In this document: piece after piece, positions 1-10,444 of the stretch
Layout of the letters: each line of letters begins with the position of its first letter
Numbering within the stretch: the first letter of the stretch is position 1
NCBI GenBank assembly: GCA_024683485.1
Contig: JAIKYD010000003.1
Coordinates: 1 to 64,000, forward strand
DNA: 64,000 bases
Direction: 5' to 3'
From: Saccharofermentans sp.
Lineage (GTDB): Bacteria > Bacillota > Clostridia > Saccharofermentanales > Saccharofermentanaceae
Translations under genes and position numbers: made by a program
Notes under the pieces: model-generated
Databases searched by the model: none
Told to the model about the DNA's origin: nothing
Seen by the model: only the letters and a program-made list of their open reading frames with translations

Positions 1-941
1 GCGCGTGTCTCGAAAAGATCGTTGTGGTGGGTCGAAGTACCGTGAGCATTGATGTAGTCAATGTCAGAGGGCTTTATTCCGGCTTCCCTCATGGCGATTA
101 TCATTGCCTCGCCTGCACCGCTTCCGTCTTCTGCAGGTGAAGTGATGTGATAAGCATCACATGTGGCACCGTATCCCACGATCTCCGCAAGAATGTTGGC
201 GCCTCTTGCCTTGGCATGCTCATAGTTCTCGAGAACGAGTACGCCGGATCCCTCACCGATAACAAAACCGTCTCTGTCCTTGTCGAACGGTCTTGAAGCT
301 GTTTCCGGATCTTCGTTTGTCGAAAGAGCTGTAAGGGCAGCGAAGCCCTGAACTCCGGTCTTGCAGACTGCCGCTTCACATCCGCCGGTGACCATAACAT
401 CAGCATCACCGAACTTGATCGCCTTGAATGCGTCCCCGATCGAGTGAAGACCTGTTGCGCAGGCGGTTACGACACAAGTGTTGATACCCTTCATTCCATA
501 CATGATAGCAATGTTGGCTGATGCCATGTTGGCGATCATCATCGGAATATACATCGGAGCTATCTTTCCGCTCTTCTCGTATCTAACCTGCTCTCTCTCG
601 TGAGCCTGCATCGAACCGATACCGGAACTTACGATAACACCTACTCTGTAAGGGTCCTCCTTCTCCATATCTAGCCCTGACTGCTCTACAGCTTCCTTTG
701 CTGCAGCGACTGCAAAATGAGCGAAAGGCTCCATGCGCTTCATCGTCTTGAAGTCCATATACTGCAGGGGATCAAAATCCTTTACTTCGCAGGCGATCTT
801 AACCTTTGAACTGCTTGTATCGTATTTGGTTATCGGTGCTGTTGCCGCCTTGCCTTTCTTAAGTCCTTCCCAGAAAGACTCAACATTTTTGCCTAAAGGT
901 GTGATCGCACCCATACCGGTTACTACGACTCTGTTTGCCAT
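1..941 (-). CDS. fabF: Beta-ketoacyl-ACP synthase II (FabF), 3' end outside the window
   Basis: Condensing enzyme of type II fatty-acid elongation: it joins malonyl-ACP to a growing acyl-ACP in the cytoplasm. The start is MANRVVVTGMG at 941 and about 313 of the usual 410 residues are visible. The nucleophile lies in VTACATG near residue 162 and the first catalytic His in NAHGTSTHHND near residue 300. The ORF track misses it because no stop occurs before base 1. It is the last visible gene of the fab operon, 104 bases after fabG. The spacer holds a palindrome and no obvious new promoter, so co-transcription is likely. The second catalytic His and the C-terminus lie outside the window. Confidence 0.95.
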   Translation of the reverse strand, partial: MANRVVVTGMGAITPLGKNVESFWEGLKKGKAATAPITKYDTSSSKVKIACEVKDFDPLQYMDFKTMKRMEPFAHFAVAAAKEAVEQSGLDMEKEDPYRVGVIVSSGIGSMQAHEREQVRYEKSGKIAPMYIPMMIANMASANIAIMYGMKGINTCVVTACATGLHSIGDAFKAIKFGDADVMVTGGCEAAVCKTGVQGFAALTALSTNEDPETASRPFDKDRDGFVIGEGSGVLVLENYEHAKARGANILAEIVGYGATCDAYHITSPAEDGSGAGEAMIIAMREAGIKPSDIDYINAHGTSTHHNDLFETR

Positions 942-972
942 TAATAAATTCTCCGTGATTCTTGTTTTCGAT

Positions 973-989
973 AATGCCTGACAGGCATT
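973..989 (-). other. Intercistronic palindrome between fabG and fabF
   Basis: AATGCCTG and CAGGCATT form 8-base arms around one central base in the 104-base fabG-fabF spacer. No T-run follows on the minus strand, so it does not look like an intrinsic terminator. It could be an RNA processing or stability hairpin, but that is inference. Confidence 0.35.
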
Positions 990-1045
990 TAAAGAAGATC
1001 CTGCAGGACCTGAATGTGTATCAGGAACAGCAGTTCCCCTGTTAA

Positions 1046-1792
1046 TTACATATGCATTCCGCCGTCAACGCTCAATACCTGGCCTGTGATGTAAGAAGCA
1101 TCATCAGAGCAGAGGAAGTTAACTGCGTTAGCGATGTCTTCAGGCTGACCGTATCTCTTGAGAGGGATCATTTCGAAGATCGCATTCTTCTGCTTGTCAG
1201 TGAGAACAGCTGTCATGGGAGTCTCAACATATCCGGGAGCGATAGCATTGAACGTGATGTTTCTTGAAGCGAACTCTCTGGCACAAGACTTTGTAACTCC
1301 AATAACTCCTGCCTTTGAAGCAGAATAGTTGACTTGTCCTGCCTGTCCCTCGATGCCTACGATAGAAGAAATACTTACGACTCTTCCCTCTCTCTTCTTC
1401 ATCATGACCGGTGTGCAGTGCTTGATGAAATTGAAAGTACCCTTAAGGTTTACTGCGATGACCGCATCAAAATTCTCTTCTGTCATCTTGAGGAGCAGAC
1501 TGTCTCTTGTGATGCCTGCGTTGTTTACGAGGATATAAATACCACCGAAATCTTCAGCAATCTGGGCAACAGTCTCGCCTACCTTCTCAAAATCAGCGAC
1601 ATTGCACTGATAAGATTTCGCTTCAACACCCAGCGCCTTGACCTCTTCCTCACAATCGCTGCTCATCTCGAGGGGGCAGGCATCAACGATAGCGATGTTA
1701 TAGCCGCTTTTCGCGAGCTTTACTGCGATCGCTCTTCCGATTCCTCTGGAAGCGCCGGTAACGATAGCTGTTTTACGTGTATTCTCTGACAT
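1046..1792 (-). CDS. fabG: 3-oxoacyl-ACP reductase (FabG)
   Basis: NADPH-dependent short-chain dehydrogenase that reduces 3-oxoacyl-ACP to 3-hydroxyacyl-ACP. At 248 residues it has family length. The nucleotide-binding motif TGASRGIGRA is at residues 13-22, NNAG follows near residue 90, and the catalytic Ser and YSASK motifs lie near residues 140-160. The C-terminus ends in TGQVLSVDGGMHM, typical of FabG. An AGGAGGT ribosome site precedes ATG 1792. It sits 18 bases after fabD and before fabF in the fab operon. A second FabG-like gene lies at 5652-6386; this one is the probable housekeeping copy because of its operon position. Confidence 0.95.
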   Translation of the reverse strand: MSENTRKTAIVTGASRGIGRAIAVKLAKSGYNIAIVDACPLEMSSDCEEEVKALGVEAKSYQCNVADFEKVGETVAQIAEDFGGIYILVNNAGITRDSLLLKMTEENFDAVIAVNLKGTFNFIKHCTPVMMKKREGRVVSISSIVGIEGQAGQVNYSASKAGVIGVTKSCAREFASRNITFNAIAPGYVETPMTAVLTDKQKNAIFEMIPLKRYGQPEDIANAVNFLCSDDASYITGQVLSVDGGMHM

Positions 1793-1810
1793 GATCTTTA
1801 CCTCCTTGAA

Positions 1811-2728
1811 TCAGCCTAGTTTTTCCAATAATGATTCCACATCTTCAGGAGTGGAAACACCGATTACCTTGATCGAAGGGACCGTCTTTCTTACAAATCC
1901 TGCGATAGTCTTTCCGGGACCGACTTCGATTATCGTATCAACACCCATCTTCTCGAGTTCATAAAGTGTCTGCTCCCACCTTACCGGGCTTGACACCTGT
2001 GCCTGGAGAAGATCCTTGATCTGCGACTTGTCTGTTATCTTCGAAGCATTTGCATTTGCGAAATAAGGGATCTTAAGATCGTTCATGCATACATTCTCAA
2101 GTTCTTTTCCGAGCTCGTCGCCTGCACCCTTAAGAAGCGGTGAATGGAAAGGTCCTGAGACATTAAGCTCAACCACTTTTTTCGCGCCTGCCTCTTCGAG
2201 CTTGGGCATTGCCTCATGTACTGCTTCCTTTTTGCCCGTGATGACGATCTGTCCGGGGCAGTTGAAGTTTGCCGGCCAGCATCCATCGATCTTGTCCGTT
2301 ACGCTTTCGATAGTCTCAGCGTCCAGACCGATAACTGCCGCCATTGTGCCTTCACCTGCAGGAACAGCATTAGACATGAGTCTACCCCTGATCCTTGTAA
2401 GTCTTACAGCATCCTCAAAACCCAGAGCACCTGCAACATAAAGGCTGCAGTATTCTCCGAGCGACAGGCCTGCCGTTACGTCAGGCTTGATGCCTGCTTC
2501 AAGAAGCGCGTCTGTGATGATGCAGCATGCGGTAACAAGTGCGGGCTGCGTGAATTCCGTTATATTAATGTCTTCGTTGGGCTCGAAAAGCAGTTTGTTC
2601 ATATCGATCCCTGAAGCTTCAGAAGCTTTGGTGATCATGTTCTGATAGCGGCTGTCTGCCTTAACAAAGCCCTCCGCCATTCCGACCTGCTGAACTCCCT
2701 GTCCCGGATAACAAAATGCGATACTCAT
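1811..2728 (-). CDS. fabD: Malonyl-CoA:ACP transacylase (FabD)
   Basis: Transfers malonyl groups from CoA to ACP, which supplies the extender unit for fatty-acid synthesis. The 305 residues begin with the family signature AFCYPGQGVQ. The nucleophilic Ser is in GLSLGEY near residue 94, the Leu variant of the GHSLGE motif that is common in Firmicutes. A conserved His is in GPFHSPLL near residue 200. Its ATG shares one base with the fabK stop (TAATG), so the two are probably translationally coupled. No odd features were seen. Confidence 0.95.
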   Translation of the reverse strand: MSIAFCYPGQGVQQVGMAEGFVKADSRYQNMITKASEASGIDMNKLLFEPNEDINITEFTQPALVTACCIITDALLEAGIKPDVTAGLSLGEYCSLYVAGALGFEDAVRLTRIRGRLMSNAVPAGEGTMAAVIGLDAETIESVTDKIDGCWPANFNCPGQIVITGKKEAVHEAMPKLEEAGAKKVVELNVSGPFHSPLLKGAGDELGKELENVCMNDLKIPYFANANASKITDKSQIKDLLQAQVSSPVRWEQTLYELEKMGVDTIIEVGPGKTIAGFVRKTVPSIKVIGVSTPEDVESLLEKLG

Positions 2729-3660
2729 TATGCTTCAAGTTTCCTTCCTAAAAGCTGATCTGCCTGTTCAAACATTGATTCAATGATGACTTTGGCAGGT
2801 CTTATCTCATTGACAAGACCTGCGATCTGTCCTGCCATGAATGTTCCTTCCTTTGTGTCGCCTTCAACGACTGCCTTGCGGAGACTTCCGACTGTAAGTC
2901 CTTCCAGTTCCTCGAAAGTAACTCCGTTCTGCTCCATCTCAAGATACTTGTTTGAAAGCGCATTTCTGATCTGCCTTACAGGGTGGCCGTAGGTTCTTCC
3001 GGTAACTCTTGTTGAGTTATCCTTTGCCCTGATGACCATATCCTTATAGTTCTCATGAACATTGACTTCGTCGCATGCACAGAACACGGTTCCGCACTGA
3101 ACGCCTTCAGCACCGAGCATAACAGCTGCCGCAACGCCTCTTCCGTCAGCAATACCGCCTGCAGCAATAACAGGAATGGATACCGCATCAACCACCTGGG
3201 GAACCAGAGTCATTGTCGTTGCCTCACCGATATGTCCGCCGGACTCTGTGCCCTCAGCGATAACAGCGTCAGCGCCGCACTGCTGCATTCTTTTCGCGAG
3301 AGCAACGCCCGCAATGACAGGAATAACGATGATGCCTGCTTCCTTCCACATTGCCATATACTTTTCAGGTGAACCTGCACCCGTTGTAACGACCTTTACC
3401 TTCTCTTCGGCAATTACCTTTGCGATCTCGGGAGCTCTGGGATTCATGAGCATGAGATTTACGCCAAACGGCTTATCTGTTGCTTCACGGCACTTTTTGA
3501 TCTGGTCACGGAGCCAGTTCTCATCCGCTCCGCCGACACCGATAATGCCGAGACCGCCTGCCTCTGATACTGCAGCTGCAATGTGCCAGTCTGCAACCCA
3601 GGCCATTCCGCCCTGGAAGATAGGATATTTAATGCCAATCAGATCTGTGATTCTTGTCAT
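2728..3660 (-). CDS. fabK: FMN-dependent enoyl-ACP reductase (FabK)
   Basis: Performs the last, NAD(P)H-dependent reduction of each elongation cycle. At 310 residues it is a TIM-barrel flavoprotein of the nitronate monooxygenase/FabK group. It begins MTRITDLIGIKYPIFQGGMA and has the FMN-binding motifs IAAGGIADGRG and GAEGVQCGT. Its place between fabH and fabD argues for FabK rather than nitronate monooxygenase. FabK replaces FabI in many streptococci and clostridia. AGGAG precedes ATG 3660. In many related operons an acpP gene sits between fabH and fabK, but here the gap is only 32 bases. Confidence 0.93.
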   Translation of the reverse strand: MTRITDLIGIKYPIFQGGMAWVADWHIAAAVSEAGGLGIIGVGGADENWLRDQIKKCREATDKPFGVNLMLMNPRAPEIAKVIAEEKVKVVTTGAGSPEKYMAMWKEAGIIVIPVIAGVALAKRMQQCGADAVIAEGTESGGHIGEATTMTLVPQVVDAVSIPVIAAGGIADGRGVAAAVMLGAEGVQCGTVFCACDEVNVHENYKDMVIRAKDNSTRVTGRTYGHPVRQIRNALSNKYLEMEQNGVTFEELEGLTVGSLRKAVVEGDTKEGTFMAGQIAGLVNEIRPAKVIIESMFEQADQLLGRKLEA

Positions 3661-3692
3661 GTTCCGGAGTCTCCTTTATTTTTTGAAAACGA

Positions 3693-4670
3693 TTAATAAA
3701 CGATGTAGTTAGCGTCCCATGTGAGGCCGGCTCCGAAGCTTGCGAGCACGAGTTTCATGCCCGGCTTGAGCCTGCCGTCCTGCTTCATCTCGGTAAGGAG
3801 CATAGGGATGCTTGCAGAAGATACATTGCCGTACTTGCTGATGTTCATGGGAAATCTTTCGCGCGGGATGCCGAGTTTCTTTGCAGTAGCTTCGATGATC
3901 CTTGCGTTTGCCTGGTGAAGGATGAAATAATCTACGTCATTCTCAAGATCGAAACTGAACTTCTCTGCAAGATCTTTAATGATCTGCGGAACTTCAGTAA
4001 CTGCGAACTTGAATACTTCTCTTCCCTGCATTGCGAAAGAAGTTAATTCCTTAAAGCCTTCCTCTTCCCATCTGTCGGGCTGTCTTGCTGCCTGGCATGT
4101 AAGGCAGTCGCTTCTGTATCCTGAGGATCTCATGATGAACTCATTGCGCTTGATATCTTCAGCCTTAAGAACTGCAGCACCTGCGCCGTCACCGAAAAGG
4201 ATGCATGTTCCTCTGTCCTCAAAGTTTGCGAAATTTGAATTGCACTCAGTACCGATTACAAGAGCAAGCTTGGAGTTTCCTGTCTCAATAAAGCTCTGAA
4301 CGGTGTTGTAAGCTACAATGAATCCGGGGCAAGCGCATACTACGTCGAAGCATCCGCAGTTCTCGGATACACCGAGTTCTCTCTGAACGATGCAAGATAA
4401 AGCAGGTATAACTGTGTCTGAAGTCGTGGATGCCGTAACGATGAAATCAATGTCCTTAGGATCGATCCCCGCATCTTCAACAGCCTTTTTCGCTGCTTCA
4501 ACAGCCATTGTGGACGGTTTCTCAGTTATGTGATCCGCGATATGTCTTTCCTTTATTCCGGTACGCTCGGTAATCCACTCGTCACTCGTATCAAGGAACT
4601 TGGCAAAGTCGTCATTTGTAACGACTTTCTTCGGGACATAAGATCCGAGTCCTATAAATCTGCCTGTCAT
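3693..4670 (-). CDS. fabH: Beta-ketoacyl-ACP synthase III (FabH)
   Basis: Starts each fatty acid by condensing acetyl- or branched acyl-CoA with malonyl-ACP. The 325 residues contain the active-site Cys in VCACPGF near residue 112, HQANARI (His) near residue 250 and YGNVSSASIP (Asn) near residue 280. It is the first gene after the FabT-flanked promoter, so the fab operon reads fabH-fabK-fabD-fabG-fabF. A GAGG ribosome site lies before ATG 4670. The motif reads CACPGF where E. coli-type enzymes have AACAGF. Whether it prefers straight or branched primers cannot be read from the sequence. Confidence 0.95.
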   Translation of the reverse strand: MTGRFIGLGSYVPKKVVTNDDFAKFLDTSDEWITERTGIKERHIADHITEKPSTMAVEAAKKAVEDAGIDPKDIDFIVTASTTSDTVIPALSCIVQRELGVSENCGCFDVVCACPGFIVAYNTVQSFIETGNSKLALVIGTECNSNFANFEDRGTCILFGDGAGAAVLKAEDIKRNEFIMRSSGYRSDCLTCQAARQPDRWEEEGFKELTSFAMQGREVFKFAVTEVPQIIKDLAEKFSFDLENDVDYFILHQANARIIEATAKKLGIPRERFPMNISKYGNVSSASIPMLLTEMKQDGRLKPGMKLVLASFGAGLTWDANYIVY

Positions 4671-4740: not shown

Positions 4741-4753
4741 TTTGATTGTCAAA
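4741..4753. promoter_or_regulatory. FabT-like operator overlapping the fabH transcription start region
   Basis: TTTGATTGTCAAA is a palindrome with 5-base arms (TTTGA/TCAAA) that matches the core of the FabT (MarR family) site known from streptococci and lactococci. It starts at the downstream end of the predicted -10 box of fabH, where a bound repressor would block initiation. No fabT gene lies in the window. Confidence 0.7.
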
Positions 4754-4782
4754 GTATCCCACAACGGTATTGCTTTTGTCAA
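4753..4782 (-). promoter_or_regulatory. Predicted fabH operon promoter
   Basis: On the minus strand, TTGACA (4782-4777) is followed after 18 bases by GATACT (4758-4753). The palindromes at 4787-4799 and 4741-4753 flank it on both sides, which supports it as the regulated start of the fab operon. The leader to ATG 4670 also holds a small hairpin, GGACA-TAGT-TGTCC, at 4713-4726. Confidence 0.65.
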
Positions 4783-4786
4783 GCGT

Positions 4787-4799
4787 TTTGATAATCAAA
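4787..4799. promoter_or_regulatory. FabT-like operator just upstream of the fabH -35 box
   Basis: TTTGATAATCAAA sits 4 bases upstream of the predicted -35 hexamer. With the flanking bases it reads GTTTTGATAATCAAAC. Its centre is 46 bases from that of the second palindrome, so two bound dimers would bracket the promoter. The match to the FabT consensus is established knowledge; binding here is inferred. Confidence 0.75.
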
Positions 4800-4882: not shown

Positions 4883-5617
4883 TTACTTCTCAAACCGGCT
4901 TGCTGCCCAGCCGCCCTCATTCATATGCGAACTCGTCAACGTCTCAAAGCCCGTAGGTGACAGTATCGGGATCTGAAGTTTCCTGATGGTCTCAGCGCTT
5001 ATCTTATAATCGTTTTCACAGTATTCGGTCCCTGCCCTCTTGACCTCATCAAGATAAACCCGGATCTGCCTTTTTGCCCTTCCGGTCATGAATATCTCAC
5101 CCATGGCGCAGAGGATCGCAGTATATCTGTCCCTGCCTCCGCAGATCAGATCGTACTGCGCAAGAAGAGCCGGGTAAACCGGTTCAAGTTCGACATATCC
5201 ACAGGAACTGATAATTACGAACTTCTTTTCGAAAATCGAATCATCCCTCATCTTGTTAAAGGTCTGCCCGTCATCAGACAATGAACCCATGTAAGGCTCG
5301 GCCAGGGACAGACAGCGGTCTGTCACAGCCTTAAGCTGTGAAGGCATGCCGTAAAAATACAAAGGAAAGCTCTCGATGATGACATCCGACTCCTTGATTG
5401 CGGAAATGATTTCCGCCATATCATCCTTAATTGCACACGTGCCGTCCTTGGATGCCCAGCAGGCAAAACAGCCTCTGCAGGGCTTGATATCCTTTGCATA
5501 AATATCTATCTTCTTCACATCCGTGCCTTCGGGAAAACCGGACACGAACGCATTCGTTACATTGAGCGTATTGCTTCTTTCGAGTTTTGGACTGCCGTTA
5601 AGGATAAGTACTTTCAT
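4883..5617 (-). CDS. Flavodoxin-fold NAD(P)H-dependent FMN oxidoreductase
   Basis: An NADPH-dependent FMN reductase-type protein of 244 residues. The N-terminal MKVLILNGSPK and the later SFPLYFYGMPSQLK are the FMN-phosphate and isoalloxazine-binding loops of this fold. CRGCFACWASKDGTC follows near residue 48, the Cys-rich loop seen in iron-sulfur flavoprotein-like reductases. It is the last gene of the KS-CLF cassette, 34 bases after the ketoreductase, and ends about 80 bases before the fab promoter. In that setting it may reduce a polyketide or acyl intermediate, or supply flavin; the substrate is unknown. The ribosome site is weak. Confidence 0.8.
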   Translation of the reverse strand: MKVLILNGSPKLERSNTLNVTNAFVSGFPEGTDVKKIDIYAKDIKPCRGCFACWASKDGTCAIKDDMAEIISAIKESDVIIESFPLYFYGMPSQLKAVTDRCLSLAEPYMGSLSDDGQTFNKMRDDSIFEKKFVIISSCGYVELEPVYPALLAQYDLICGGRDRYTAILCAMGEIFMTGRAKRQIRVYLDEVKRAGTEYCENDYKISAETIRKLQIPILSPTGFETLTSSHMNEGGWAASRFEK

Positions 5618-5651
5618 CTGATCATTACCATGCCCCGAAAATTTACCCGCA

Positions 5652-6386
5652 TCAGAGGCTCAGACCTCCGTCGAGCACGATCACCTGACCGGTCATATAA
5701 GCAAAAGCTCCCGTAAGGAGGCTCGCAACACAATCCGCAACATCCTCAGCAGTGCCGAAACGCTTCATGGGAACAGCATCAAGATACTTCTCAGCCAGAT
5801 CCCCCGGAATGGACTTGATCATGTCCGTGCCGATAAAGCCGGGAGCTACCGCATTGACCTGGATCCCGTAAGGCGCAAGTTCTTTGGCCATTGTCTGCGT
5901 CAGTGAGTTGACTGCACCCTTTGTCGCACTGTAAACGCACTGGCCGGGAACCGCCAGGACGGAACTTACAGAAGAAACGTTGATTATCTTTCCGCTCTTC
6001 TGTGAGCACATCTTAAGACTAGCAGCCTGTGCGCAGTTTATATATCCCTTGATATTGATATCAAGACTTCTGTCCAGTGATTCCTGCCTGATCATGAGAA
6101 GATATGCATCATCAACAACACCGGCATTATTGATCAGGACATCAATAGTCTCAAAGTTCTTCTTGATATCCTTGAACATAGCTTTGACCTGTGCGATATC
6201 TGACGTATCCGCTTTATATATCTCGCAGCGGACACCTTTGGCTGTTATCTCCTCCTGAGCAGCTTTGGCAGCTTCGTCATTGCTCGCATAATTAAGCGCT
6301 ATGTCATAACCCTCCGAGGCAAGCTTAAGCGATATCGCTTTGCCTATTCCTCTTGAACCGCCTGTGACAACTGCCGTTTTGCCCAT
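5652..6386 (-). CDS. FabG-like ketoreductase of the KS-CLF cassette
   Basis: Short-chain dehydrogenase of 244 residues with TGGSRGIGKA at residues 8-17, NNAG near residue 90, the catalytic Ser run VSSVSSV and YSATK near residues 140-160, and the terminal TGQVIVLDGG. This is the 3-oxoacyl-ACP reductase subfamily. The fab operon already contains a FabG, and this copy lies 19 bases after the two-domain ketosynthase and near an ACP. It is therefore probably the beta-keto reductase of that pathway. AAGGA precedes ATG 6386. The reaction type is well supported, while the acyl substrate is not known. Confidence 0.88.
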   Translation of the reverse strand: MGKTAVVTGGSRGIGKAISLKLASEGYDIALNYASNDEAAKAAQEEITAKGVRCEIYKADTSDIAQVKAMFKDIKKNFETIDVLINNAGVVDDAYLLMIRQESLDRSLDINIKGYINCAQAASLKMCSQKSGKIINVSSVSSVLAVPGQCVYSATKGAVNSLTQTMAKELAPYGIQVNAVAPGFIGTDMIKSIPGDLAEKYLDAVPMKRFGTAEDVADCVASLLTGAFAYMTGQVIVLDGGLSL

Positions 6387-6405
6387 AATGTATTCCTTTC
6401 AGAAA

Positions 6406-8667
6406 TCACGCTTTGGTAAGCAATACTGCCGAGTAAAGCGCACTGGTTCCGAACGAGACAGCTATTCCCGTCTCTAATCTGCCTTCATAAATATCCTTGG
6501 CAAGCATCGCAAACTGCATCGAAGAAGATGCCGCTCTCGCTTCACCGTAATCCTTCTTTACAAGTTTGACTTCGATACCGTCTCCGAAGATCTTCTTATA
6601 GACTTCCATCTCGAATTCATCGACTTTCCTGATACCGTTTCCGAATCCATAGATACAGGACACATCCGAAGCCTTCATCCCTGCTTCGTCCAGAACGTTC
6701 TCAATAGCCTTTACGAGCGCCTTCTCTGAAAGCCTCAGATTGTCAGTCCTGTCACCCGAAGTATCTCTGGTTGAAGAGAAGCCTGCGATCTTGGCATAAC
6801 GCTTTGCTCCTCTTTCAGCGGCGCTTGAATCCTTCTCGATAACGCAGGTTACCGAGCCTTCACCCAAAGTCATGCCGCCTTCACCTGTAAAGCCCAGATC
6901 GAGGTATATCTCATCATCAATATCAGTGCATTCGTCTGTTCCCGATGCGAGCATAATGTTCTCATAACCGAACAATATCGCGCCTGCTGCAGCGCAGACA
7001 CTCTGGAGACCTGACTGGAATCCGTTTGCGATAGTAACGTTATAGCCCTTGATGCCGGTGGCAATCGAGAGATATCCGCCTGCTGCATTATAAACGGTGT
7101 TCGGGAAAGCAAAAGCACTTCCCTTATCGATGCCGTCCCTTATGATGCCCTTCTGGAAATTGGCGATCTCCGTCATCGGGCCGTCATTGGTTCCTATGCA
7201 GATTCCGATTATTCCCTCATTCTCGTCAGTAACGGTAATGCCGGCATCTTCCAAAGCCTTGATCCCGCTCAGAAGCTGGAGTTGTGATAATCTGTCGAGT
7301 TTTCTTAAGAACGCGGACTTGACGCCGTAAGCCTTGAAAATATCCGTATCAAGGTTTGCAATATAGTCACCGGTATCAGCATCAAATTCGCCGCTTACGA
7401 TCCCTATGCCTGTAACGTAAAGACTTTGCTTGGGGCATAAGAGATTAAGCACATTCGGATCTTTTGCGAAAACTATGCTCGCATTGTTGCCTCCGAAGGC
7501 AAAAGAATTCGACATCGCATACTTAATGTCCTTTTGACAGGGCTTATTGGCAATAAAGTTGATGTCACCTGACTTCTCTTCCAATACTTTAAGGTCTTCT
7601 TCTGAATATCCCGTCGTCGGAGGAAGCTTGCCTTCAGTAAGGGCTTTGACGGTGATGACCGCCTCAATAGCTCCTGCAGCTCCGAGGCAGTGTCCTGTCA
7701 TGGACTTCGTGGAACTTACATAAAGATCCTTGTTATCCTCGAAAACCGTTTTCAAAGAAAGGAATTCCGACTCATCATTTTTTGCCGTACCGGTACCGTG
7801 AGCATTTACGTAATCGATATCAGTAAACTTGAGACCGGAGTTCCTGACCGCGCGTGTGATAACGCTCATCTGGCCTTCACCGTCAGGTCTCGGGGCGGTT
7901 ATATGGTAAGCGTCCGAACTGACGCCGGAACCTAAGACATCACAGTATATTTTCGCGCCACGCTTAACAGCATGCTCGTAACTCTCAACGACAAGCACAC
8001 CGGCACCTTCGCCCAATGTGATCCCGTCACTGTGGTTGAAGGGGGAACAGTCGGAAGGGGCCAATGCCCTTAATGCGTGGAACCCTGAATATGCAAGAGA
8101 TGAGAAAGAATCGCACCCGCCTGCAAGGAAGATCTCACCCTTGCCGCCTCTTATGAGGTCTATGGCAAGAGCAATGCTCAGTGTACCTGCAGCACAGGCA
8201 TTTACTATATTGGCGGTTATTCCGCCGGCATTATAATAATCGGCGACATTGCCGGCAATAACAGAGGCAGGCATTGATTTAAGGTCGTCATATTCGCCCT
8301 TCTCGCCTTTTGCTTTCTGGCCGTAATATTTCTCAACACAGGCAGCTCCTGCGATACAGCTTCCGAGCAGTACACCTATCTCAGAAGCATCCTCGGAATT
8401 CATATCGATCCCGGCATCTTTTATTGCCTCTCCGGCCGCCTTTATACCCAGAGCGGTAGTCCTGTCGTATTTGCCGCCTGCCATTTCCATATCTGAAAGC
8501 TTTACTTCAGCTCCCTTATGCGAATAACAGTCGGAAGTATCAAAACTTGCCGCATCAGCAATACCGGATCTGCCTGTCAGCGCAGCTTCAAAGCATTCAT
8601 CGACATTATCACCGATAGCGCAGACAAGTCCTAATCCGGTGATAACGCAGCGCTTCTCGTTCAGCAT
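6406..8667 (-). CDS. Two-domain ketosynthase: active KS fused to a Cys-less KS (KS-CLF-like)
   Basis: A 753-residue protein made of two tandem FabF-like thiolase-fold units. The first (about 1-405) has a full catalytic set: Cys in VNACAAGT near residue 160, His in NAHGTGT and His in KSMTGHCLGAAG, with the C-terminal SFAFGGNN loop. The second (about 415-753) keeps the fold (TGIGIVSG, ALEDAGI, FPNTVYNAAGG), but the Cys position is changed to Phe in IANGFQSG. That pattern matches KS-alpha/KS-beta (chain-length factor) pairs of type II polyketide and aryl-polyene systems, here in one chain. It lies 2 bases from the ACP gene. GAGGA precedes ATG 8667. The product is unknown. Confidence 0.85.
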   Translation of the reverse strand: MLNEKRCVITGLGLVCAIGDNVDECFEAALTGRSGIADAASFDTSDCYSHKGAEVKLSDMEMAGGKYDRTTALGIKAAGEAIKDAGIDMNSEDASEIGVLLGSCIAGAACVEKYYGQKAKGEKGEYDDLKSMPASVIAGNVADYYNAGGITANIVNACAAGTLSIALAIDLIRGGKGEIFLAGGCDSFSSLAYSGFHALRALAPSDCSPFNHSDGITLGEGAGVLVVESYEHAVKRGAKIYCDVLGSGVSSDAYHITAPRPDGEGQMSVITRAVRNSGLKFTDIDYVNAHGTGTAKNDESEFLSLKTVFEDNKDLYVSSTKSMTGHCLGAAGAIEAVITVKALTEGKLPPTTGYSEEDLKVLEEKSGDINFIANKPCQKDIKYAMSNSFAFGGNNASIVFAKDPNVLNLLCPKQSLYVTGIGIVSGEFDADTGDYIANLDTDIFKAYGVKSAFLRKLDRLSQLQLLSGIKALEDAGITVTDENEGIIGICIGTNDGPMTEIANFQKGIIRDGIDKGSAFAFPNTVYNAAGGYLSIATGIKGYNVTIANGFQSGLQSVCAAAGAILFGYENIMLASGTDECTDIDDEIYLDLGFTGEGGMTLGEGSVTCVIEKDSSAAERGAKRYAKIAGFSSTRDTSGDRTDNLRLSEKALVKAIENVLDEAGMKASDVSCIYGFGNGIRKVDEFEMEVYKKIFGDGIEVKLVKKDYGEARAASSSMQFAMLAKDIYEGRLETGIAVSFGTSALYSAVLLTKA

Positions 8668-8669
8668 CT

Positions 8670-8921
8670 TCAGTCCTCTTTATGTGCTTCAACGAATGCG
8701 GCAAGTGTCTCGATCGAACGGAAATCCTCTTTTGTGGCACCTGAACCTGAGAGATCTACTCCGAAGAGATTCTCGATTCCGACAATGATCTCAATGGAAT
8801 CGATGGAATCAAGTCCTATATCCTCACCGAAAAGCTCGGAATCATACTCGAGCTCGTCCTCAGGGATCCTGAGTCTTTCAACAAGCATCCCCTTGATTTT
8901 CTCGGCTATCTCATTATTCAT
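8670..8921 (-). CDS. Acyl carrier protein of the KS-CLF cassette
   Basis: Small acidic carrier protein with the phosphopantetheine site in EDIGLDSIDSIEI; the Ser of DSID would carry the arm. The ORF track starts at TTG 8939, but the AGGAGG ribosome site lies inside that extension, so ATG 8921 (MNNEIAEKIKG, 83 residues) is preferred with about 9 bases of spacing. ATG 8927 is a less likely alternative. It sits between the C39-like gene and the two-domain ketosynthase and is the only ACP in the window. The fab operon has none between fabH and fabK, so a housekeeping role cannot be excluded. Confidence 0.88.
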   Translation of the reverse strand: MNNEIAEKIKGMLVERLRIPEDELEYDSELFGEDIGLDSIDSIEIIVGIENLFGVDLSGSGATKEDFRSIETLAAFVEAHKED

Positions 8922-8972: not shown

Positions 8973-9605
8973 TTACACTAAGTTGCCCTGTTTTTCCAAC
9001 GAAACGGAATAAAAGTGCAAAATCACGTTAAAGCGTCTCAACTCTGTTATCGACATCCTGCATTTATATCCCCATGAAGATACCCATAGCGTGTCCCCGT
9101 CAATATCTGTGATCGTAACCCAGTGGAATCCTATCATCGTCTTATGTCCGTCAGGCAATTCCACAGCCACGTTGTTGAACGGCGCAGTAACGAGCATTAC
9201 CAGCGGATCCCCGCCCTTCAGATAATCAGGTATCTTCTTATACCACTTGAACCTGAAAGGCTTGACCTTTACCGAAAGGCCTTCCTTGACTCCGAGCTTT
9301 TTCACGCCCTTCCTGAACCTCGATGCACTTACACCAAAGCTCCCGAGAAACTCTTTGCCAAACAGTTTTCTCGGTTCCATGTTCTTGCCGACAGTAATAG
9401 GTCTTATGTAGTCCTTGGCATCAAAGAACCTCTCGAAATACTCTTCCCTCGGCATCCTCTCCTCGCCTTTCAGGCGCATGATCGCATCAAGACCTGCGAT
9501 TATCCCGCAGCCGCTGTTAAGCAGCATTTTGTCAGGAAGCCACATCTGGCTTCCTCCGAAAGATTCAAGTCCGTATTTATCGATTATCTTGGGCGGCACA
9601 CTCAT
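8973..9605 (-). CDS. Papain/C39-like Cys-His protein of the KS-CLF cassette
   Basis: 210 residues with no signal peptide or membrane segment. Three segments recall papain-fold enzymes: LNSGCGIIAGLDAI near residues 30-43 (Cys at the start of a helix), GFHWVTITDIDGDTLWV near residue 165 (His on a strand) and SSWGYKC just after, where papain has NSWG. Asn is therefore replaced by Ser. This suggests a C39 or papain-like fold with a Cys-His dyad, either a peptidase or a thioester-handling acyl/amide transferase. Its gene overlaps the asparaginase stop (ATGA) and precedes the ACP, so action on an ACP-bound acyl chain is possible. GAGGTG precedes ATG 9605. Function is unassigned. Confidence 0.6.
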   Translation of the reverse strand: MSVPPKIIDKYGLESFGGSQMWLPDKMLLNSGCGIIAGLDAIMRLKGEERMPREEYFERFFDAKDYIRPITVGKNMEPRKLFGKEFLGSFGVSASRFRKGVKKLGVKEGLSVKVKPFRFKWYKKIPDYLKGGDPLVMLVTAPFNNVAVELPDGHKTMIGFHWVTITDIDGDTLWVSSWGYKCRMSITELRRFNVILHFYSVSLEKQGNLV

Positions 9606-10444
9606 CTCAAAAGCACCTCACACCATGCTCCCTCAACAGGCATTCCCGGAAGCTCGACAGCTCCCGCATCCGTAAGTCTCTTCCTGCTCTCGTAAACTTC
9701 ACCTTTTTGCGGAACCGGTGCCATAAAGCACTGGATGCCTTTGCCGGTCCATTCTTTTACAAGAGGCTCAAGAGCAACAGGGGCCGTTCCCGAGTGATTA
9801 CAGCAGATAAGGACTCTGTCAAACCCTTTCTCAGGAATGACAGGATCAGGCATTGCGGGAATAACAAGTATCTTTGGCAATCTTTCCTTCGAGAAAAAGT
9901 CCGAATGATCCTTTATCTCCAGCGAGCTGCAGTCACGGTATTCCGTGTAGATCCCGTTAATGTCCGGAGATACTATGTGACTTGCCCTGTAAAGCTTCGG
10001 TATCCTGTCAAAGTTTCTGAACGCAACACCGCTCTTACCCTTCTCGAGGCAATTAACAGCAAACAAAAGGTTGTATCCTGCCTCCTCCGGGTCAACATCA
10101 GGTGATCTTAACGAACCCGTTATTACAAAAGGGATTATAAGCGGTGATAACACCCTGTATGCGAGCTGTGCGAAAAAAGCACATGTATCAGTTCCGTGCG
10201 TAATAAGTATCCCGTCATATCTGGATCCGGATGCCTCATCAATGATCTGCTTCAGCGCCTTGCGGTAATCCTCAGCAGTAGCATTCTCCGAAGAATACCT
10301 GTCAAACTCCGGAAAGACATACTCATTCTCAGATGAGTATTCGAGCAAAAAATCCTGAACAAAAGAGGGGGCTCCAAGCTTGACCGTTCCGTCAGACAAG
10401 GACGATGAGATCGTTCCCCCGAGCATGGCTACTAATATCCGCAT
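9602..10444 (-). CDS. L-asparaginase family protein (type I-like)
   Basis: Asparaginase-fold amidohydrolase of 280 residues, shorter than the usual 330 or so. The N-terminal nucleophile loop is LGGTISS near residue 8, and the second catalytic loop is THGTDT near residue 83, followed by FVITGSLRSP. No signal peptide is visible, so it would be cytoplasmic. It is the first gene of the minus-strand run that continues into the C39-like, ACP and KS-CLF genes, with a 4-base overlap. This might mean a role in that pathway or mere co-transcription. AAAGGGA precedes ATG 10444. A hydrolase or transferase variant with another amide substrate is possible. Confidence 0.85.
   Translation of the reverse strand: MRILVAMLGGTISSSLSDGTVKLGAPSFVQDFLLEYSSENEYVFPEFDRYSSENATAEDYRKALKQIIDEASGSRYDGILITHGTDTCAFFAQLAYRVLSPLIIPFVITGSLRSPDVDPEEAGYNLLFAVNCLEKGKSGVAFRNFDRIPKLYRASHIVSPDINGIYTEYRDCSSLEIKDHSDFFSKERLPKILVIPAMPDPVIPEKGFDRVLICCNHSGTAPVALEPLVKEWTGKGIQCFMAPVPQKGEVYESRKRLTDAGAVELPGMPVEGAWCEVLLR

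What the first reader, a model, noticed from the sequence alone, without database searches (positions are those of the whole stretch)
6406..8667. Single-chain KS-alpha/KS-beta with Cys-to-Phe in the second active site
KS and CLF are normally two proteins that form a heterodimer. Here they are one 753-residue chain, with NACAAGT in the first half and NGFQSG at the same place in the second. A fusion would fix the 1:1 pairing and could serve as a natural tethered model for chain-length control.
Basis: partly seen in the sequence, partly recalled or inferred. Interest (0 to 1): 0.6.

Follow-up and report, generated by a model that had tools for sequence, protein, structure and literature searches.

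The report
Single-chain ketosynthase–chain length factor
A gut/rumen bacterium makes its polyketide-type chain-building enzyme (active ketosynthase plus inactive partner) as one protein instead of two; the fusion is real, conserved and belongs to a scattered, apparently undescribed family of stand-alone fusions, so it is a useful natural tethered enzyme but not a one-off curiosity.

Summary
The 753-aa ORF (6406-8667, minus strand) is one polypeptide: an intact ketosynthase (Cys158-His290-Lys321-His326) joined by about 13 residues to a KS-fold domain that has lost Cys and both His (F550, F675, E709). It is not an assembly artefact. At least 35 genomes of the genus carry it, both halves under strong purifying selection. 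More distant single-ORF homologues lie on a closed Lachnospira eligens megaplasmid (47%), Priestia plasmid pBM500, a closed Clostridium-like genome and Streptomyces plasmids. AlphaFold2 (pTM 0.83; only one of five models good) matches the PfaC KS-CLF didomain (6riw) full length. The Phe is not diagnostic: that site is F/Y/S in the genus and A/G/N/H elsewhere. No second dehydratase exists, so it probably borrows FabD/FabZ from that operon and makes a reduced/polyene acyl chain. The inactive halves form their own clade, apart from actinomycete KSβ in the best tree (a common clade not rejected, AU p=0.063). Verdict: new variant of a known kind; product unknown.

The parts
6406..8667 (-). Fused KS-CLF gene, 753 aa plus stop
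   Evidence: orthologues
7462..8667 (-). KSalpha half, residues 1-402; catalytic Cys158 (codon 8194-8196), His290 (7798-7800), Lys321 (7705-7707), His326 (7690-7692), all invariant in 27 orthologues
7423..7461 (-). Linker, about residues 403-415, between last KS strand (395-401) and first CLF-half strand (416-425)
   Evidence: secondary structure of model
6409..7422 (-). KSbeta/CLF-like half, residues 416-753; Cys->F550 (codon 7018-7020), His->F675 (6643-6645), His->E709 (6541-6543); invariant in the genus: Q551, FPNTVYNAAGGY, GEARxAS
   Evidence: dN/dS 0.05-0.15
7108..7110 (-). Ala520, aligned with E. coli FabF Phe133 (dimer-interface pocket); variable across the family (A/M/K/L/Q/V/I/Y/D) inside an otherwise fixed motif: candidate length determinant
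   Evidence: alignment; pocket role from knowledge of FabF, not tested
8670..8921 (-). Dedicated acyl carrier protein (GLDSIDS motif), 2 nt upstream of the KS-CLF start
   Evidence: 53% identical to L. eligens cluster ACP
5652..6386 (-). Ketoreductase (FabG-type SDR); 60% identical to the L. eligens cluster KR, only 35% to the FAS FabG of the same genome
4883..5617 (-). Flavodoxin-fold NADPH:FMN-reductase-like protein, homologues present in the L. eligens and Clostridium-like clusters
4741..4799 (-). Promoter of the FAS operon (TTGACA-18-GATACT, -35 at 4782) with two perfect TTTGANNNTCAAA (FabT-type) boxes at 4741-4753 and 4787-4799; separates cassette from FAS operon
3..4670 (-). Neighbouring FAS-II operon: fabH 3693-4670, fabK 2728-3660, fabD 1811-2728, fabG 1046-1792, fabF to 941 (runs off the window); likely donor of FabD/FabZ activity, not part of the cassette
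   Evidence: full order in L024/L113
8973..9605 (-). Resident flanking gene (C39/papain-like by motif only, no family hit); present at the same place in genomes without the cassette, so not part of it

Best explanation
A single-chain ketosynthase-chain length factor of a small reducing type II PKS-like cassette (ACP - KS-CLF - KR - flavodoxin). Proposed mechanism: the dedicated ACP is loaded with malonyl by FabD of the neighbouring FAS operon; Cys158 of the first half takes the growing acyl chain and His290/His326 drive decarboxylative condensation (inferred from intact residues); the KR reduces the beta-ketone; the only FabZ of the cell, in the FAS operon, may dehydrate it; repeated cycles give a hydroxy-, enoyl- or polyene-type chain. 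The second half has no catalytic residues; it packs on the first as the other half of the KS pseudo-dimer and shapes the acyl tunnel across the interface (candidate residue A520), thereby setting chain length or protecting the chain. Covalent fusion fixes 1:1 pairing. Shown: the fusion, its conservation, loss of catalytic residues, purifying selection, cassette boundaries. Predicted: the pseudo-dimer. Inferred: chemistry, borrowed enzymes, product class.
For: Intact C-H-K-H in the KS half and loss of Cys and both His in the second half in all orthologues and in distant fusions. Purifying selection on both halves, dN/dS 0.03-0.07 and 0.05-0.15. Model pTM 0.83 matching PfaC KS-CLF 6riw over the full length, TM 0.70, E 3e-38. 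Adjacent ACP and KR; the KR is closer to that of the L. eligens fusion cluster (60%) than to the cell's own FabG (35%), so the cassette looks inherited as a unit. Empty site in five relatives shows the four-gene boundary. The L. eligens, Priestia and Clostridium-like fusion clusters carry their own FabZ and malonyl transferase, whereas five near-complete genomes of the window's genus have one FabZ only, that of FAS.
Against: No product, no activity and no chain-length effect shown. Only one of five AF2 models was good (mean pLDDT 71.6; others 41-51), and the CLF half alone did not fold with confidence (47.3). The FAS operon has its own promoter and FabT-type boxes, so co-expression with the cassette is not assured. 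The CLF half is the faster-evolving half.
Confidence: 0.68

Rival explanations
1. The second half is a cyclisation or folding factor rather than a chain-length factor, as proposed for AmcG beside AmcF in cispentacin biosynthesis; the cassette makes a short cyclic product after few condensations.
For: AmcF-AmcG shows that a KSbeta-like partner can act in cyclisation (PMC10698177); the KS half gives a fair hit to AmcF (269 bits, cut-off 325) and the ACP to AmcB (44 bits, cut-off 80); no dehydratase inside the cassette.
Against: Other fusion clusters have KR plus FabZ and look like iterative polyene systems; no AmcC/D/H-type genes were seen beside the cassette.
Confidence: 0.15
2. It is an auxiliary elongation enzyme of ordinary fatty-acid synthesis (a FabF/FabB-like second condensing enzyme, for example for unsaturated or unusually long membrane acyl chains) with a degenerate structural half.
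For: KS half is FabF-like (TIGR03150 460 bits); the gene sits directly upstream of the only FAS operon; the L. eligens cluster carries AccD and PlsX.
Against: It has its own divergent ACP and KR, sporadic distribution (35 of at least 84 genus genomes), and the FAS operon keeps its own FabF, FabG and promoter.
Confidence: 0.13
3. Assembly or annotation artefact joining two genes.
For: The window is from a fragmented assembly (82% complete); one relative has the halves in two frames.
Against: Same fusion in tens of independent assemblies, two isolates and several closed replicons.
Confidence: 0.01

Closest known systems
PfaC KS-CLF didomain of PUFA synthase (Moritella marina, PDB 6riw)
   Same: KS and CLF covalently joined in this order and predicted to pack the same way (TM 0.70 full length)
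   Different: PfaC is part of a multidomain megasynthase with DH domains; here a free-standing 753-aa protein with separate ACP and KR; 16% identity
Fused KS proteins of Lachnospira eligens, Priestia megaterium pBM500, Clostridium-like genomes G766/G805, Streptomyces NBC_00335/HUAS 15-9 (plasmid copies annotated only 'beta-ketoacyl-ACP synthase family protein')
   Same: Single ORF of 753-812 aa with active KS half and inactive second half; halves form matching clades
   Different: Clusters larger, with own FabZ, malonyl transferase and in some GcvT-like, PPTase and ABC transporter genes
cyl operons for granadaene-type ornithine rhamnopolyenes (CylG, AcpC, CylZ, CylF, CylH/I)
   Same: The Clostridium-like and Priestia fusion clusters share malonyl transferase, KR, ACP, FabZ and a GcvT-like gene next to the KS, and the former also ABC transporter, glycosyltransferase and PPTase (PMC6985545)
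   Different: The window cassette has no GcvT-like, transporter, acyltransferase or own FabZ gene; whether CylH/I is itself a KS-CLF fusion was not checked
Highly reducing type II PKS KS-CLF heterodimers (Iga11-Iga12 6KXD; ApeO-ApeC)
   Same: KS plus inactive partner, ACP and KR; Foldseek hit 6kxd_A
   Different: Two separate proteins
PDB 9s5h/9s5i chains B and C (two '3-oxoacyl-ACP synthase' chains, no publication found)
   Same: B is the best sequence match of the KS half (277 bits) and sister to the fused KS halves; C has the same FPNTV motif and a lost Cys
   Different: Separate chains; organism and function not known here

Membership tests
Type II PKS KSalpha/KSbeta (KS-CLF) pair | KSalpha with Cys-His-His | tested here: met
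   C158, H290, H326 invariant
Type II PKS KSalpha/KSbeta (KS-CLF) pair | KSbeta homologue lacking the active-site Cys | tested here: met
   F/Y/S at 550
Type II PKS KSalpha/KSbeta (KS-CLF) pair | Dedicated ACP beside the pair | tested here: met
   ACP 8670-8921
Type II PKS KSalpha/KSbeta (KS-CLF) pair | Two dissociated polypeptides | tested here: not met
   One ORF
Type II PKS KSalpha/KSbeta (KS-CLF) pair | KSbeta falls in the actinomycete KSbeta clade | tested here: inconclusive
   Separate in best trees, but AU p=0.063 does not reject one clade
Type II PKS KSalpha/KSbeta (KS-CLF) pair | Gln in place of Cys (KSQ type of aromatic CLFs) | tested here: not met
   Q only at the next position (Q551); compare L120-L122 CLFs
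KS-CLF didomain (PfaC type) | KS and CLF in one chain forming a pseudo-dimer | tested here: met
   One chain by sequence; pseudo-dimer by prediction only:
KS-CLF didomain (PfaC type) | Embedded in PUFA synthase subunit with DH domains | tested here: not met
   Only KS domains found
Chain length factor (function) | Sets product chain length | not testable with these tools
   Needs product analysis of mutants
cyl (granadaene) operon | GcvT-like CylF, CylE acyltransferase, ABC exporter with the KS | tested here: not met
   Absent from the window cassette and its neighbours

The most novel reading that the evidence does not exclude
A KSalpha-KSbeta pair that arose by its own KS duplication and degeneration, independently of the actinomycete KSbeta line, was fused once in an ancestor and then spread among Gram-positive bacteria as a free-standing single-chain condensing enzyme for reducing type II (polyene-type) pathways; in Saccharofermentans it was cut down to a four-gene cassette that draws on the housekeeping FAS operon for its missing malonyl transferase and dehydratase.
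Probability: 0.4. Interest if true: 0.58.

Novelty: new variant of a known kind. Interest (0 to 1): 0.42.

Why it matters
KS-CLF pairs are hard to study because the two proteins must be co-expressed and matched. A natural, small, single-chain version with many homologues whose interface residues vary (for example position 520) would give a simple system to test how the inactive half sets chain length, and to engineer it. It also points to an uncharacterised acyl/polyene-type product in common gut and rumen anaerobes (Saccharofermentans, Lachnospira eligens).

Tried and rejected
Assembly merge: rejected by closed replicons and isolates. 'Unique fusion': rejected by homologues. 'Phe is special': rejected, site varies. 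First idea that KS-CLF is the first gene of the FAS operon: rejected, a promoter with two FabT-type boxes lies between. First idea that the flanking asparaginase-like and C39-like genes belong to the system (acyl release): rejected by their presence at the same place in genomes without the cassette. Folding the CLF half alone from 11 close homologues gave a poor model, not used. A literature search for '9S5H' and for a ladderane/CLF link gave nothing useful; no paper was found naming a stand-alone fused type II KS-CLF, but the library lacks most subscription journals.

Full report
CHECK. The frame 6406..8667 is open on the minus strand only, 753 aa, ATG start. Pfam and NCBIfam find a FabF-like KS in residues 4-402 and a second, degenerate KS match behind it. 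In an alignment of 27 orthologues C158, H290, K321 and H326 are invariant; at the equivalent places of the second half stand F550 (Y in two, S in two orthologues), F675 and E709.

NOT AN ARTEFACT. Within the genus (Saccharofermentans-like rumen/gut Clostridia) 35 genomes carry the full fusion, including two isolates. A tblastn search of plasmid records found the same architecture on the closed Lachnospira eligens megaplasmid (47% identity over the whole length), Priestia megaterium pBM500 and Streptomyces plasmids; whole-genome searches added G382, G344 and the Clostridium-like G766/G805. All plasmid copies are annotated merely as 'beta-ketoacyl-ACP synthase family protein'. Pairwise dN/dS is 0.03-0.07 for the KS half and 0.05-0.15 for the second half, so the inactive half is kept by selection. 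One MAG copy (G136) is broken by a short deletion.

STRUCTURE. AlphaFold2 on the 27-sequence alignment gave pTM 0.83, mean pLDDT 71.6; the other four models were poor (41-51). The best PDB match of the whole chain is 6riw, the KS-CLF didomain of PfaC (E 3e-38, TM 0.70 by query length, 930 columns), i.e. both halves in the PfaC arrangement. The linker is about 13 residues.

CONTEXT. In five genomes of the genus that lack the fusion, the upstream C39-like gene is followed directly by fabH. This empty site defines a four-gene cassette (window 4883-8921). The KR is 60% identical to that of the L. eligens fusion cluster and 35% to the FabG of its own FAS operon; ACP 53%, flavodoxin 41%: the four genes share a history. 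Two perfect TTTGANNNTCAAA boxes (expected 0.2 in the window) flank a sigma-70-like promoter before fabH, so the FAS operon is a separate unit. The own genome and five near-complete relatives have a single FabA/FabZ-type dehydratase, the one of FAS, whereas the L. eligens, Priestia and Clostridium-like clusters carry their own FabZ and malonyl transferase. I infer that the cassette borrows these from FAS.

DESCENT. In two trees the second halves of all fusions form a clade (85/41, and 99/97* with long branches removed), the first halves another (64/93; 92/90), with matching branching orders, as one old fusion or pair would give; PDB 9s5h chains B and C, separate proteins, branch next to the first and second halves respectively. 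The actinomycete KSbeta proteins group with their own KSalpha instead; forcing them together with the second halves is not rejected (AU p=0.063), so a separate origin of this KSbeta is likely but not shown.

POSSIBLE LENGTH DETERMINANT. E. coli FabF F133, which from knowledge of FabF lines the partner's pocket at the dimer interface, aligns with A520. Across the family this one position is A, M, K, L, Q, V, I, Y or D inside an otherwise nearly fixed FPNTV motif. That is what a specificity residue would look like, but it is a lead only.

RELATION TO KNOWN SYSTEMS. It works like a reducing type II KS-CLF and is built like the PfaC didomain, but fails one defining feature of each (two polypeptides; megasynthase context). 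The larger fusion clusters resemble cyl operons for granadaene-type polyenes (PMC6985545). I did not fetch the pathogen's genes to test whether CylH/I is fused. No paper found describes stand-alone fused type II KS-CLF proteins, with the caveat of the library's coverage.

VERDICT. A real, conserved new variant of a known kind; moderately interesting as a tethered model and as a marker of an unknown product in gut anaerobes.

Noticed in passing
window 4741-4753 and 4787-4799: Two perfect FabT-type palindromes (TTTGANNNTCAAA) around the fabH promoter; similar boxes precede fabH in relatives with and without the cassette (L113, L128-L130).
   Followed up: partly
window 8973-9605 (-): Genus-restricted protein without any Pfam/NCBIfam hit, with Cys and His motifs reminiscent of C39/papain-like enzymes, always between an asparaginase-like gene and the FAS operon.
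   Followed up: partly
window 9602-10444 (-): Asparaginase-like protein with only the N-terminal asparaginase domain recognised, overlapping the next gene by 4 nt.
   Followed up: no
L112:1497-8272: In genome G344 the fused KS-CLF sits in a cluster with an NRPS module, PPTase, FabZ-like and SDR genes and two small peptides resembling Nif11/NHLP-type leader peptides.
   Followed up: no
G000:C122 (outside the window, same assembly): A 2992-aa frame with three carrier-protein domains (probable NRPS) with a PPTase nearby in the window's genome.
   Followed up: no
L114:6279-8515: Copy of the fusion gene in G136 split by a short deletion and frameshift near the end of the KS half; pseudogene or assembly error.
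   Followed up: partly
L118:4921-10310: Streptomyces cluster holding a separate KS/KS-like pair and additionally a single-chain KS-CLF, next to a FabH-like gene and a gene annotated 'thermostable hemolysin'.
   Followed up: no
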